A DNA stretch of 64,000 bases from Terrirubrum flagellatum (GTDB taxonomy: Bacteria; Pseudomonadota; Alphaproteobacteria; Rhizobiales; Beijerinckiaceae). The notes below the pieces were generated by a model. That model was not told the DNA's origin. It ran no database searches and worked only from the letters and a program-made list of their open reading frames with translations. Below, piece by piece: positions 37,122 to 42,235 of this stretch. How positions within the stretch are numbered: position 1 is the first letter of the stretch; each line of letters starts with the position of its first letter. The stretch covers positions 3,968,001 to 4,032,000 of the forward strand of contig NZ_CP091851.1 of NCBI RefSeq assembly GCF_022059845.1, in the 5' to 3' direction. Position numbers and translations under genes: made by a program.

Positions 37122-37922
37122 ATGAATCTCGAACTCGACGGCAAGGTCGCGATCGTCACCGGCGGCAGCCGCGGCATCGGCAAGGCGATCGTCAACGCGC
37201 TGGCGCGCGAGGGCGTCGATGTCGCGATCGTGGCGCGCGATATGGAAACAGCCGATGCGACCGCGAAGGAGATTTCTGCGGCCACAAGCAGGAAGGTGAA
37301 AGCCTATCGCGCCGACACCGGCGACGACGCCGAGACGCGCGCGGCGACCGCCCAGATCGTCACGGATTTCGGCCGCATCGACATTCTCGTCAACGCCGCT
37401 GCGCAGCCCGGCGGCCAGGCGCCGCCGCCCAAGCTCGCCGAGGTGACGTCGGATTTCTTCCACGCTGACGTGAATGTGAAGGTGATGGGCTATCTGCGCA
37501 TGGCGCGCGAGGCGGCGCCGCACATGATCGCCGGAGGCTTCGGCCGCATCATCAATATCAGCGGGCTTGCAGCGCGGCAGACAGGCGCGATCGTCGGCAG
37601 CATCCGCAATGTCGGGGTCGCGGCGCTGACCAAGAATCTCGCCGACGAACTCGGGCCGCACGGCATCACCGTCAATTGCGTGCATCCCGGTCTGACGCGC
37701 ACGGAGAAGACGGAAGGCGTGATCGCGCGCATGGCCGAGAAGCAGGGCGTCGCGCCGGACGAGATCGAGCGACGCATGGCGTCAGGAAATTCGATCCGCC
37801 GTTTCGTCACGGCGGAGCAGATCGGCGACATCGTCGCTTTTCTCGCCTCGCCGAAATCGATCGCCATCAATGGCGAGTCAATCGGCGCCGGCGGCGGCGC
37901 GCCCGGCGCGATTCACTACTGA
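37122..37922 (+). CDS. SDR-fold protein lacking the usual catalytic Tyr and Lys
   Basis: A protein of 266 residues with the Rossmann cofactor motif TGGSRGIG (13-20) and NAA as the NNAG counterpart (VNAAAQPG). The C-terminus and length are ordinary for SDRs. At the place of the YxxxK active site it reads R162-N-V-G-V166, within GSIRNVGVAALTKNLADELG. So it may bind NAD(P) but not catalyse the normal reaction, or use other residues. It follows ptsH by 30 bases on the same strand. Substrate unknown. Confidence 0.84.
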   Translation: MNLELDGKVAIVTGGSRGIGKAIVNALAREGVDVAIVARDMETADATAKEISAATSRKVKAYRADTGDDAETRAATAQIVTDFGRIDILVNAAAQPGGQAPPPKLAEVTSDFFHADVNVKVMGYLRMAREAAPHMIAGGFGRIINISGLAARQTGAIVGSIRNVGVAALTKNLADELGPHGITVNCVHPGLTRTEKTEGVIARMAEKQGVAPDEIERRMASGNSIRRFVTAEQIGDIVAFLASPKSIAINGESIGAGGGAPGAIHY

Positions 37923-37974: not shown

Positions 37975-39750
37975 CTATGCCGCCGGCTGCGCGTGGGTGA
38001 TCGCCGCGATCTTCTGCTGATGAGCGACGAAACCCTTCGCCGCGTCCGACTGGAAGAGGCTGAGCTTGTCCGCTTCATCATCGGCGACCGGCGCCATCGC
38101 CGCGTCAGCGTAAGTTTTCTGAAGCTCCTTGCGCCGCGAACGGATCACGAGACTGGCCGCGCCATGCTTGCCCCAAAGCCAGGTCCAGCGCGCCTGCTTG
38201 ACGAGCGTTTCGAGCGCAAACTTGGGATAAAACACGAGCGGATGCTCGATCGGCATCCCCGGACGCCGCACGGTCCGCGACTTGCGCCTGACATAGCCGA
38301 CTTCGAGGGGATGGACGCCCTCGATGTCGATCGAGCCCATGAACCACATCTGATAGACGAGCAGCTTGGTCGGCGGGATGCCGACGGACGCCGCGCGCTT
38401 CTGCACCGTCTTCATGTGATCGTCGGAATAATAGAAGCGCCACGCGTCGCGATAGACGCTTTCCCACTCGCTGCGCGACATCTTGGGATGATCCGTGCAG
38501 GTGTGGTTGAGATCGTAGCGGTTCATGTCGGCGTCCATGGCGACGCCCTTCGACCAAAGAACCTTGTGATCTTCCGAACCCGGCAGCGGCGTCAGCAGGA
38601 AGAATTCGAGAATATCGACCGGCAGCTCGGTCTTGATGATCTGCAGGTCGCGCATGATGGAGGCGCGCGTATCGCCGGGGAAGCCGAGGATATAGCCGGC
38701 GTAGGTGATGATGCGATGCTCCTTCCAGTCGAGCAGCATGCGCCGATATTCCGTGATCTTGTTCTGCCGCTTCTTCGCGCCGACGAGGCTTTCCGGATTG
38801 ATGTTCTCGAGGCCGATGAACACGCGCCGCACGCCGGCCAGCGCCGCCTTCTCGATGAAACGCGGAATCTTGTGGCAGAGCGTGTCGACCTGAATGGTCG
38901 CCGAAATCCGGATGCCTTCATCGCGCAGCGCGATCAGGCGATCGAAAATCTGCTCCCAGTCCTTGTTGCGGGCGAAATTATCGTCGGTGATGAAATATTG
39001 ATGCACGCCCGCGGCGTCGTTCTCGCGCACGATGGCTTCGATATCGTCCGCCGAACGACGACGTGAAATCCGGCCCTGCACATTGATGATGGTGCAGAAA
39101 GAACACTGATAAGGACAGCCGCGGCCGGCGTCGAAGCTCGTCATGCGCCCGACCGTTCGGGCGATTTGTTCGCTTGGCAGGTAGGGAATAGGCGTTCCCC
39201 CGACGCCGGGCAGATCCTTCATGTAATTGTAGAGCGGCGCGAGCGCGCCGCGCGCGGCGTCCTGAAGCACGCCTTCGAGACGCCCTTCGGCCTCGCCTGC
39301 GAACAGCGACACGCCAAGCTTCTCGGCGCGCAGCACATCGGGATCGCGCTCGGGCAGCATCGCGATCGTGCCGGAGACATGGAATCCGCCGATGCCGACC
39401 TGCAGGCCGGCGGCGCGGAACTCCGTCGCGAGATCGAGCGCGCGCGGCATCTGGTTGGATTGCACGCCGACCAGCATCACCATGCCGCCGGCGGCCGACG
39501 CCTTCACACGCTGGATGATATCGCCAACCCGAATGCGCGTGTTGGTCTCGTCATAAACTTCAAGCTCGATATCGACATCGTCGCCGAGCACGCGCCGGGA
39601 GGCGCAGTCGCGCGCCAGCCCGTAAAGCGCGGCAAGACTGTTCGAGGGGATCCAGGATTTCCACCACTGGATGACGTAGCCGTCATCGTCATAGTGGGAC
39701 GGCTTGATCAGCACCAATCGGAAGACCGACCGTGGGAGCGTGGTCGACAT
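37975..39750 (-). CDS. B12-binding-domain radical SAM protein
   Basis: A protein of 591 residues. The N-terminal part, about 1-190, has a cobalamin-binding-like fold (GVQSNQM...GGFHVSG), and the radical SAM core has the cluster motif CPYQCSFC at about 215-222. Further conserved parts are TDDNFARNKDWEQIFD and GLENINPESL. The C-terminal 200 residues (YDLNHTCTDHPKMSRSEWESVYRDAW) are characteristic of a subfamily seen in many alphaproteobacteria. Substrate unknown, perhaps lipid or hopanoid modification, which I cannot confirm. Convergent with the SDR-like gene. Confidence 0.88.
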   Translation of the reverse strand: MSTTLPRSVFRLVLIKPSHYDDDGYVIQWWKSWIPSNSLAALYGLARDCASRRVLGDDVDIELEVYDETNTRIRVGDIIQRVKASAAGGMVMLVGVQSNQMPRALDLATEFRAAGLQVGIGGFHVSGTIAMLPERDPDVLRAEKLGVSLFAGEAEGRLEGVLQDAARGALAPLYNYMKDLPGVGGTPIPYLPSEQIARTVGRMTSFDAGRGCPYQCSFCTIINVQGRISRRRSADDIEAIVRENDAAGVHQYFITDDNFARNKDWEQIFDRLIALRDEGIRISATIQVDTLCHKIPRFIEKAALAGVRRVFIGLENINPESLVGAKKRQNKITEYRRMLLDWKEHRIITYAGYILGFPGDTRASIMRDLQIIKTELPVDILEFFLLTPLPGSEDHKVLWSKGVAMDADMNRYDLNHTCTDHPKMSRSEWESVYRDAWRFYYSDDHMKTVQKRAASVGIPPTKLLVYQMWFMGSIDIEGVHPLEVGYVRRKSRTVRRPGMPIEHPLVFYPKFALETLVKQARWTWLWGKHGAASLVIRSRRKELQKTYADAAMAPVADDEADKLSLFQSDAAKGFVAHQQKIAAITHAQPAA

Positions 39751-40887: not shown

Positions 40888-41784
40888 ATGGCGGTCGTGT
40901 TCCTGGACCCTGAGCCGTCTACGGGAGACGGTTTTGATGTCGCCGCACAATATCAGATGGTTCCGAGCGGCGGCCATCGGCGCATGGGCCTCTGGGTGCA
41001 AGCTGACGAAACAGAGGATGTAATCATCTATCCTGCCGATCCGAACAAGATCGGGCTGTGGGGTCTTTATACGATTGACGGGCGCCCTGCAGTCACGCGC
41101 GGCGCCGGTTATCAGGTGGCGAGGAATTCAGCGATCCGCTTTTTCATGCGTGGACGCGACCCAGGCCCGACCGCCTTGATCGTCGAAACCGTCTCCGGAA
41201 AGCCACGCAGCTTCCTGCTTGTCTCCGTCAAGACGCAACGGGCCCTCACCTATCAGCTTTATGTCCTCTCGGATGCGGTGCGAAAGCCCAACATTGTCGA
41301 ATCGGGCGGTGAGATGAAAACGATCATGGCGGATGTGGCGCGCCTTTTCATCGAGCAGGCGAACGTCAAGCTGACACAAGTCGGCGACATCGCCAACGCG
41401 GCCGCTCTTCTCGATCTCAATGCGCGCGATCCGCTCAAGAGACGGATCTTTCTCGACGATCCAACGATATTCTCTGCGATCGCATCGGCAGCTCTGGCGG
41501 CGCCACACGCCATCGCCGATCTCTATATTTTCCGCACCTGGGATATCGTCATCGAGTCGAAACCGGACCTCGTTGGACTCGCAACCGGGAACTGCTGCTT
41601 CGTGGAGAATTTTCCACCCGGCAACAGGGCGACCTCCCTCTATGCCCATGAAATCGGACACAATTTGGGCCTGTTTCATGACAACGATGCGCAGCACATC
41701 ATGTTTCCGAATATCGGGGGTTTGTCGTTTTCAATGCATGACATCGAGACGATGAATTTTGGATATCCGATCGGAGCAATCTGA
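40888..41784 (+). CDS. Metzincin-type zinc metalloprotease-like protein
   Basis: A protein of 298 residues. The zinc motif HEIGHNLGLFHD (His254, His258 and His264, with catalytic Glu255) fits HExxHxxGxxH, and Met272 in HIMFPN is placed as the Met-turn. The first about 120 residues form a separate, beta-rich-looking region of unknown kind. No signal peptide is evident, so export may be by another route. Parts are less GC-rich than the neighbours, for example near the 3' end. The next gene begins one base after the stop. Target is unknown. Confidence 0.78.
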   Translation: MAVVFLDPEPSTGDGFDVAAQYQMVPSGGHRRMGLWVQADETEDVIIYPADPNKIGLWGLYTIDGRPAVTRGAGYQVARNSAIRFFMRGRDPGPTALIVETVSGKPRSFLLVSVKTQRALTYQLYVLSDAVRKPNIVESGGEMKTIMADVARLFIEQANVKLTQVGDIANAAALLDLNARDPLKRRIFLDDPTIFSAIASAALAAPHAIADLYIFRTWDIVIESKPDLVGLATGNCCFVENFPPGNRATSLYAHEIGHNLGLFHDNDAQHIMFPNIGGLSFSMHDIETMNFGYPIGAI

Positions 41785-41785
41785 G

Positions 41786-42235
41786 ATGTCGCTCCGTTCG
41801 AATCTTTTCACTGGCGATAAGGCGCTCGAAGCGGCGAGCGCCAACCATAAGGCGCATATTATGCGCGGCGCCATCGGAACACATGTGCGCAGGATTCAGG
41901 TCGCGCTCTCGGTGCTTGATAACGCTGTGATCGCCGAGAATGAAATGGCGTCGTTCATGTTCGGCCCAACCACGGCCGCAGCAGTTCTCGCCTACAAGCG
42001 CGCGCGCGACATCGTCAATCACTCTTATCAGAGCCAAGCGGACGACATCGTCGGGATTATGACGGTGGCGGTGATGGACAAGGAGTTGTTTGAAAATGAA
42101 GTGGCCCCTGAGCGAAGCCGGCAATACTCATGTCGCCGCCGCTGCCTTTGCGTGACGAACAGCGAGCGCAAGCAGGCCGCATTGGCCATTGCGCAGCGGA
42201 TGTCGGCTCATCTTGGGCGGTCGCTTATCAGCTAG
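41786..42235 (+). CDS. Peptidoglycan-binding-domain-like protein
   Basis: A protein of 149 residues. The section HVRRIQVALSVLDNAVI...FGPTTAAAVLAYKRARDI resembles a peptidoglycan-binding type 1 domain (repeat with FGPxTxxAV) between about residues 28 and 85. The last 45 residues, with SRQYSCRRRCLCV, are arginine and cysteine rich and do not look like the rest, so a frameshift may have altered the end. The ATG lies one base after the metzincin stop, and the 3' end overlaps the end of the cyclase gene on the other strand by four bases. Probably a partner of the protease. Confidence 0.62.
   Translation: MSLRSNLFTGDKALEAASANHKAHIMRGAIGTHVRRIQVALSVLDNAVIAENEMASFMFGPTTAAAVLAYKRARDIVNHSYQSQADDIVGIMTVAVMDKELFENEVAPERSRQYSCRRRCLCVTNSERKQAALAIAQRMSAHLGRSLIS

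What the first reader, a model, noticed from the sequence alone, without database searches (positions are those of the whole stretch)
40888..42235. Metzincin plus peptidoglycan-binding-like pair placed between FecR and a CHASE2 cyclase
A HEIGHNLGLFHD protease with a Met-turn but no signal peptide is followed after one base by a small protein with a peptidoglycan-binding-like repeat. The pair separates a FecR protein from a CHASE2 cyclase, genes that are usually neighbours, and parts are less GC-rich than around. It may be a recently gained cassette, such as a cell-wall-targeted effector.
Basis: partly seen in the sequence, partly recalled or inferred. Interest (0 to 1): 0.6.

Follow-up and report, generated by a model that had tools for sequence, protein, structure and literature searches.

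The report
Probable type VI protease effector pair
Two neighbouring genes in a soil-type bacterium encode a zinc protease and a small cell-wall-binding-fold protein that in relatives are fused together or sit beside the genes of a molecular injection machine, so they are probably a weapon carried by that machine, a variation on a theme already known.

Summary
ORF 40888-41784 is a metzincin-type protease (HEIGHNLGLFHD, Met-turn). ORF 41786-42235, one base later, carries a ~107-aa module with a peptidoglycan-binding-domain fold. The pair has the lowest GC of the window's genes. It lies in a 4.2-kb stretch (radical SAM, FecR, protease, module) missing from the same site in the one same-genus genome held.

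The module explains the pair. It recurs in Hyphomicrobiales, Beta-, Gamma- and Deltaproteobacteria and Acidobacteria, alone next to a cargo gene or fused to its N-terminus. Of 56 loci with a partner, 23 partners carry HExxH, against 7 of 354 control ORFs. Related metzincins are fused to the module in 3 genomes and split from it, protease first, in 3. Module genomes carry a type VI secretion system (T6SS) in 29 of 31 same-family and 11 of 11 other genomes (background 94/397 and 88/398). In 9 of 57 loci the module lies beside T6SS genes, usually right after clpV.

Best reading: a T6SS effector pair, protease plus delivery or wall-anchoring module; export and toxicity are inferred. Close precedent exists: PG_binding_1 domains, alone or fused, in vgrG loci (PMC10673891), reported there only from Gammaproteobacteria. 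New variant of a known kind.

The parts
40888..41784 (+). metzincin-type zinc protease gene, 298 aa: N-terminal domain with the YQMVP...R motif (aa ~15-130) and catalytic region (aa ~135-298)
   Evidence: family alignment A7 of 7 proteins
41647..41679 (+). zinc motif HEIGHNLGLFH (aa 254-264)
   Evidence: HExxH invariant in 7 of 7 members of A7
41701..41703 (+). Met-turn methionine (aa 272)
   Evidence: M272 invariant in 7 of 7
41773..41776 (+). ribosome-binding-like GGAG for the second gene
   Evidence: read
41786..42235 (+). PGBD-like module gene, 149 aa; conserved module aa 1-107 (41786-42106) plus a ~42-aa low-confidence tail
37975..39750 (-). radical SAM protein, first gene of the 4.2-kb stretch absent from the same-genus genome
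39996..40622 (+). FecR-domain protein with a possible Tat signal; also without a match in the same-genus genome
42232..44205 (-). CHASE2-adenylate/guanylate cyclase; flank of the stretch
37122..37922 (+). short-chain dehydrogenase-like gene; its look-alike adjoins the cyclase directly in the same-genus genome (identified by eye from the N-terminal sequence)

Best explanation
[quoted passage not shown] The metzincin-like protein is the cargo protease. The small protein is a peptidoglycan-binding-fold module that travels with it, as a loading partner, as a wall anchor in the recipient's periplasm, or both. In relatives the same module is fused to the N-terminus of metzincins and other cargo, so the split form should work as a complex. 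Neither protein shows a Sec or Tat signal by eye, so export would be in one step through the T6SS encoded elsewhere in the genome. Shown: the module family, its fold, split and fused forms, zinc-protease enrichment, and T6SS co-occurrence and linkage in relatives. Inferred: physical complex, export by T6SS, zinc proteolysis, target and toxicity. The target is unknown; no obvious immunity gene adjoins the pair.
For: Pair conserved in Bosea lupini (L013) and in another same-family genome (L118, G495), protease first. Fused module-metzincin proteins in L014, L108 and L122. HExxH and Met-turn invariant in 7 of 7 family proteins. Partner carries HExxH in 23 of 56 loci with a partner, against 7 of 354 control ORFs. 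30 partners fused, 26 split, in 18 partner clusters. TssC present in 29 of 31 same-family genomes with a strong module hit, against 94 of 397 overall, and in 11 of 11 module genomes searched outside the family, against 88 of 398 in the phylum sample. In 9 of 57 loci three or more T6SS core genes lie beside the module. The window's genome has a T6SS with TssB, TssC, Hcp, TssE, TssF, ClpV and VgrG. Module model: pLDDT 87, PGBD fold. A start codon lies within one residue of module position 1 in 53 of 57 loci, which leaves no room for a signal peptide.
Against: The pair is 1.7 Mb from the genome's TssC, and no T6SS core gene was found in the 64-kb window. Two strong-module genomes, G529 and G815, show no TssC. 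The third zinc ligand varies in the family (His in 4, Asp in 2, Glu flanked by His in 1) and the motif glycine is replaced in 2 of 7. No adjacent immunity gene was recognised. The protease model failed (pLDDT 31), so its fold rests on sequence. The genomes are related, so the co-occurrence p-values are too small.
Confidence: 0.62

Rival explanations
1. The proteins are T6SS accessories that act on the producer's own wall (anchoring or opening the peptidoglycan, as TagL-type proteins do), not cargo.
For: PGBD-like fold and position right after clpV in several T6SS clusters. PGB-domain proteins are known T6SS membrane-complex accessories (PMC10433429 and PMC10210955, passages seen).
Against: No signal peptide or membrane segment seen by eye, so no obvious route to the own periplasm. 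Many different cargo types are fused or adjacent. Many module loci per genome, mostly away from the T6SS operon.
Confidence: 0.1
2. The pair is a low-GC foreign or decaying insertion with no present function.
For: Low GC; absent from the site in the same-genus genome; far from the T6SS.
Against: Both frames are open, with a ribosome-binding site and one-base spacing. HExxH and Met-turn are kept although identity to relatives is only 19-28%. The same two-gene layout occurs in two other genomes.
Confidence: 0.15
3. The pair is exported by another route (for example an extracellular contractile injection system or type I secretion) and the T6SS association is by genome type only.
For: The window pair is unlinked to T6SS; 2 of 31 strong-module genomes lack TssC.
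Against: Physical linkage to tss operons in 9 loci; 11 of 11 in distant lineages. Other secretion systems were not searched.
Confidence: 0.08

Closest known systems
PG_binding_1 (cl38043) proteins of vgrG loci, one of six stand-alone-or-fused domain families (PMC10673891; abstract, section 11 and passages read)
   Same: PG-binding-type domain, stand-alone or fused to a toxin, proposed to help T6SS effector recruitment. Our module also occurs in Thiodictyon (Chromatiaceae) and Povalibacter (Steroidobacteraceae), and the paper names Chromatiaceae and Sinobacteraceae; that these are the same proteins is inference.
   Different: The paper reports it as limited to Gammaproteobacteria, in vgrG loci, and in what I read tested DUF2345 and LysM, not PG_binding_1. 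Here it is in Alpha-, Beta- and Deltaproteobacteria and Acidobacteria, often after clpV or orphan, with zinc proteases as frequent cargo.
MIX and WHIX T6SS effector domains (PMC12135965, passages read; MIX as described in PMC10673891)
   Same: A conserved domain, alone or fused to varied toxins, found in T6SS genomes.
   Different: A PGBD-like domain, not WHIX or MIX by name or description (no direct sequence comparison was run); no secretion experiment for this module.
VgrG2b C-terminal metallopeptidase / Tpe1 (PMC6899460, passages read)
   Same: T6SS-delivered HExxH metallopeptidase; periplasmic toxin.
   Different: Those have a cognate immunity protein and, for VgrG2b, fusion to the spike; our pair has a PGBD-like partner and no recognised immunity gene.
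PDB 4nso 'Effector protein' (identified from memory as Vibrio cholerae VgrG3 C-terminal region)
   Same: Best solved sequence match to the module profile, E 9e-4.
   Different: Weak match; there the domain carries a glycan hydrolase (recalled).

Membership tests
Metzincin metallopeptidases | HExxHxxGxxH/D zinc motif | tested here: met
   HEIGHNLGLFH in the window protein. In the family HExxH is invariant 7 of 7; G in 5 of 7; third ligand H 4, D 2, E 1.
Metzincin metallopeptidases | Met-turn | tested here: met
   M272 invariant 7 of 7.
Metzincin metallopeptidases | metzincin fold | tested here: inconclusive
   AlphaFold2 model failed, pLDDT 31, 3 sequences. The family profile hits MMP and adamalysin chains around the motif, best E 7e-5.
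Matrixin (Pfam Peptidase_M10) | family-wide similarity above cut-off | tested here: inconclusive
   27.5 bits against cut-off 24, but over 32 motif residues only; 4 of 7 members match at E up to 1.
PG_binding_1 / PGBD | sequence profile match | tested here: inconclusive
   No match for the window copy at E up to 1; 6 of 8 members match, best 1.3e-6; the T6SS-cluster form L093 matches at 4e-13.
PG_binding_1 / PGBD | PGBD fold | tested here: met
   SleB domain 6tci Z 11.0, rmsd 1.4 over 73; SleC 9h68 Z 11.2, rmsd 1.8 over 84. Foldseek E only 0.05-0.2, probability 0.99-1.00.
PG_binding_1 / PGBD | binds peptidoglycan | not testable with these tools
   No ligand or binding test.
T6SS effectors | genome carries a T6SS | tested here: met
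   TssC at G000:C1:2311813; TssB, TssC, Hcp, TssE, TssF, ClpV, VgrG by Pfam.
T6SS effectors | gene lies in or next to a T6SS or vgrG locus | tested here: not met
   Not met for the window pair; met in 9 of 57 family loci. Orphan cargo effectors are known (recalled), so this lowers but does not exclude membership.
T6SS effectors | T6SS-dependent export | not testable with these tools
   Needs a secretion assay.
T6SS effectors | adjacent immunity gene (antibacterial effectors) | tested here: inconclusive
   Only FecR upstream and a convergent cyclase downstream; anti-eukaryotic effectors need none.
Stand-alone-or-fused T6SS module families (PMC10673891) | found both as its own gene beside cargo and fused to cargo | tested here: met
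   26 split and 30 fused of 56 loci with a partner.

The most novel reading that the evidence does not exclude
A PGBD-fold protein, used in trans or as a fused N-terminal domain, is the common delivery module of a polymorphic T6SS effector class spread over Hyphomicrobiales (Bosea, Methylocella, Ancylobacter), other Proteobacteria and Acidobacteria. Its favoured cargo is zinc proteases of several unrelated families, and the same metzincin family has moved between fused and two-gene forms, with gene order reversed when split.
Probability: 0.4. Interest if true: 0.65.

Novelty: new variant of a known kind. Interest (0 to 1): 0.5.

Why it matters
If true, it gives a searchable marker for T6SS effectors in groups whose effector sets are little known (methanotrophs, Bosea, Acidobacteria), where such effectors are mostly orphan genes far from the T6SS. 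It points to metalloproteases as a recurrent weapon and offers natural split and fused versions of one effector to test whether the module loads cargo or anchors it in the recipient wall.

Tried and rejected
Plasmid and phage origin: no tblastn match for the protease or for the Bosea module in those collections. Defence-system reading: no PADLOC match. PHROGs gave only endolysin families and one family of unknown function for the module. The weak DUF1039 / type III co-chaperone hits of the module cover 24 residues and were set aside. The structure of the protease could not be predicted.

Family-level module search: the 13 weakest genomes (E above 1e-6, up to 1e-3) were separated from the 31 strong ones after seeing the list; only 1 of those 13 has TssC. 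With all 44, 30 have TssC (p 2e-11 instead of 5e-18). Both p-values ignore relatedness. In the partner table, L097 has no partner under my rule (57 loci in all). Partners of the window, L013, L069 and L118 were assigned by hand because of ORF overlap or protease-first order. Several loci are near-copies (for example L060/L119, L105/L127, L091-L096), so 23 of 56 is not 23 independent cases. L124 is only a partial, weak module hit; L069 has a masked stretch; both are kept in the counts. Class-level search found a strong match only in the window's own genome among 385. The metzincin alignment A2 found members in only 3 of 31 module genomes; L108, L118 and L122 were found later as module partners.

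Literature: searches. No paper was seen among those listings that describes this pair or a metzincin T6SS effector with a PGBD module; that is a statement about these searches only.

Full report
What is there. The first protein ends in a metzincin-type motif, HEIGHNLGLFHD, with a Met-turn; Pfam Peptidase_M10 scores 27.5 bits (cut-off 24) over the 32 motif residues only. The second has a conserved N-terminal module of about 107 aa. GC of the two genes is 56.7% and 58.4%, against a mean of 64.4% (sd 2.8) for 43 ORFs of 150 aa or more in the window; they rank lowest and second lowest.

Where it sits. In the window the order is SDR (+), radical SAM (-), FecR (+), protease (+), module (+), CHASE2 cyclase (-). 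In G001, the only same-genus genome held, the cyclase look-alike (58% identity) is followed directly by the SDR look-alike. G001 gives no match to the radical SAM (E up to 1e-10) or to FecR (E up to 1e-5). So a 4.2-kb stretch is present in one and absent in the other. It could be gain or loss; the GC of the pair favours gain of at least these two genes, while radical SAM and FecR have ordinary composition. FecR lies within about 1.5 kb of 4 of 18 other cyclase homologues, so I do not support 'usually neighbours' for this pair. G001 has one diverged relative of the protease elsewhere (31%) and one module protein elsewhere.

The module is the key. Searching the module in 100 relatives found it as the N-terminus of longer proteins with different C-termini. 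In Bosea lupini (G052; the contig was named) it occurs as the same two-gene pair, protease first (L013), and fused with a related metzincin in one 533-aa protein (L014). A family-wide profile search found it in 44 of 397 same-family genomes, 31 of them at E up to 1e-6, and in 5 of 385 genomes of the class, strong only in the window's own. A collection scan gave 15 loci, from Alpha-, Beta-, Gamma- and Deltaproteobacteria and Acidobacteria, including Ancylobacter, Propylenella, Methylocella, Reyranella, Paraburkholderia, Thiodictyon and Povalibacter. AlphaFold2 with 15 sequences gives pLDDT 87, about 92-98 over residues 1-100. The fold is that of peptidoglycan-binding domains: SleC Z 11.2, SleB Z 11.0 with rmsd 1.4 over 73 residues, phage enzymes Z about 10; Foldseek E-values are modest, 0.05 and up, with probability 0.99-1.00 for the best rows. 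The best solved sequence match is PDB 4nso 'Effector protein', E 9e-4, which I recall as the VgrG3 C-terminal region.

Cargo. I tabulated 57 module loci. Under a simple rule (C-terminal tail of 120 aa or more, or a same-strand gene within 300 bases; four partners assigned by hand), 56 have a partner: 30 fused, 26 split, in 18 sequence clusters. HExxH is present in 23 of the 56, against 7 of 354 other ORFs of 150-450 aa in the same loci. Copies of one locus in related strains inflate this, but at least four different zinc-protease types are seen: the metzincin family of the window; a ~210-aa type with HExxHxxGL (L060, L065, L068, L069, L103, L117, L119); an aspzincin-like type (L066, Pfam Aspzincin_M35 E 7.6e-5, below its cut-off; L105 and L127 in the same cluster); and the C-terminus of the proteins after clpV in g12 genomes, the genus of Bosea lupini (L091-L096). 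Large non-HExxH cargo families exist too (clusters of 11 and 9 loci), so protease cargo is frequent, not universal. The window's metzincin family has seven members, including split pairs in L013 and L118 (protease first in all three split cases, window included) and fusions in L014, L108 and L122. Across the seven, HExxH, the Met-turn methionine, a tryptophan (W218), N159 and N-terminal-domain residues (Q23, P26, R31, G89) are invariant; the third zinc ligand and the motif glycine are not. In the other split loci of the table the cargo was taken downstream of the module.

T6SS link. TssC (PF05943) is in 94 of the same 397 family genomes and in 29 of the 31 strong-module genomes; the exceptions are G529 and G815. 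Outside the family, 11 of 11 module genomes searched have TssC, against 88 of 398 in a phylum sample. Of 57 loci examined, 9 have three or more T6SS core genes beside the module: L057 (Ancylobacter), L067 (Deltaproteobacteria MAG) and L091-L097 (the stretches examined were 5 to 20 kb, and 64 kb for the window); in L057 and L091-L096 the module gene follows clpV directly or nearly so. The window's genome has its own T6SS 1.7 Mb away, with TssB, TssC, Hcp, TssE, TssF, ClpV and VgrG confirmed by Pfam. No T6SS core gene was found in the 64-kb window. A start codon lies within one residue of module position 1 in 53 of 57 loci, stand-alone or fused, so there is no room for an N-terminal signal peptide. 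A PG-binding-fold protein without a signal peptide fits one-step export.

How it probably works. The protease and module are made together from one operon, form a complex, and are loaded on the T6SS. In the recipient the module either has finished its loading job or holds the protease at the wall, and the protease cuts an envelope or other target. The complex, export and target are inferences. VgrG2b/Tpe1 shows that a T6SS can carry a periplasmic HExxH metallopeptidase (PMC6899460, passages). With no recognised immunity gene, a non-bacterial target or a target absent from the producer is possible.

Comparison with what is known. PMC10673891 reports PG_binding_1 among six domain families that are stand-alone or fused in vgrG loci and proposes a role in effector recruitment; by its abstract and the passages I read it tested DUF2345 and LysM, not PG_binding_1, and it states a Gammaproteobacteria-only distribution. 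Our module occurs in one of the families it names (Chromatiaceae) and in Povalibacter, now Steroidobacteraceae, which I recall as formerly Sinobacteraceae, so it is probably the same kind of thing, here with wider taxonomic range, orphan and post-clpV positions, and zinc-protease cargo. Hence 'new variant of a known kind'. PGB domains are also known in T6SS wall-anchoring proteins (PMC10433429, PMC10210955; passages), which I treat as a rival reading.

Limits. Thresholds for 'strong' module hits were set after seeing the list. Counts include related genomes. Signal peptides were judged by eye.

Noticed in passing
L092 and L095 (T6SS clusters of g12 genomes), gene just upstream of the module-protease fusion: A second HExxH protein (HELGHRICR...) of 274-283 aa lies 28-32 bases upstream of the fusion, so the T6SS cluster may carry two metalloproteases.
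   Followed up: no
L012, L015, L016, L100, L104, L123, L126, L129, L131: A large cargo family without HExxH, with a shared 'IN(I/L)GG(E)HE...GF.D ... SDI(C)(I/F)R'-like signature and no Pfam match in its C-terminus in those scanned, is always fused to the module.
   Followed up: partly
L056, L057, L058, L064, L101, L102, L120, L132, L133, L134, L136: The largest cargo cluster (11 loci), always a separate gene downstream of the module; no Pfam match in the three scanned.
   Followed up: partly
L018 6961-8022 (window genome, contig C3): The window's genome has a second module protein, with a proline-rich linker and an unknown C-terminus, on a 275-kb contig.
   Followed up: partly
window 37975-39750 and G000:C1:2381851-2383608: The radical SAM gene of the 4.2-kb stretch has a 58% paralogue 70 kb from the genome's TssC gene and no match in the same-genus genome.
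   Followed up: no
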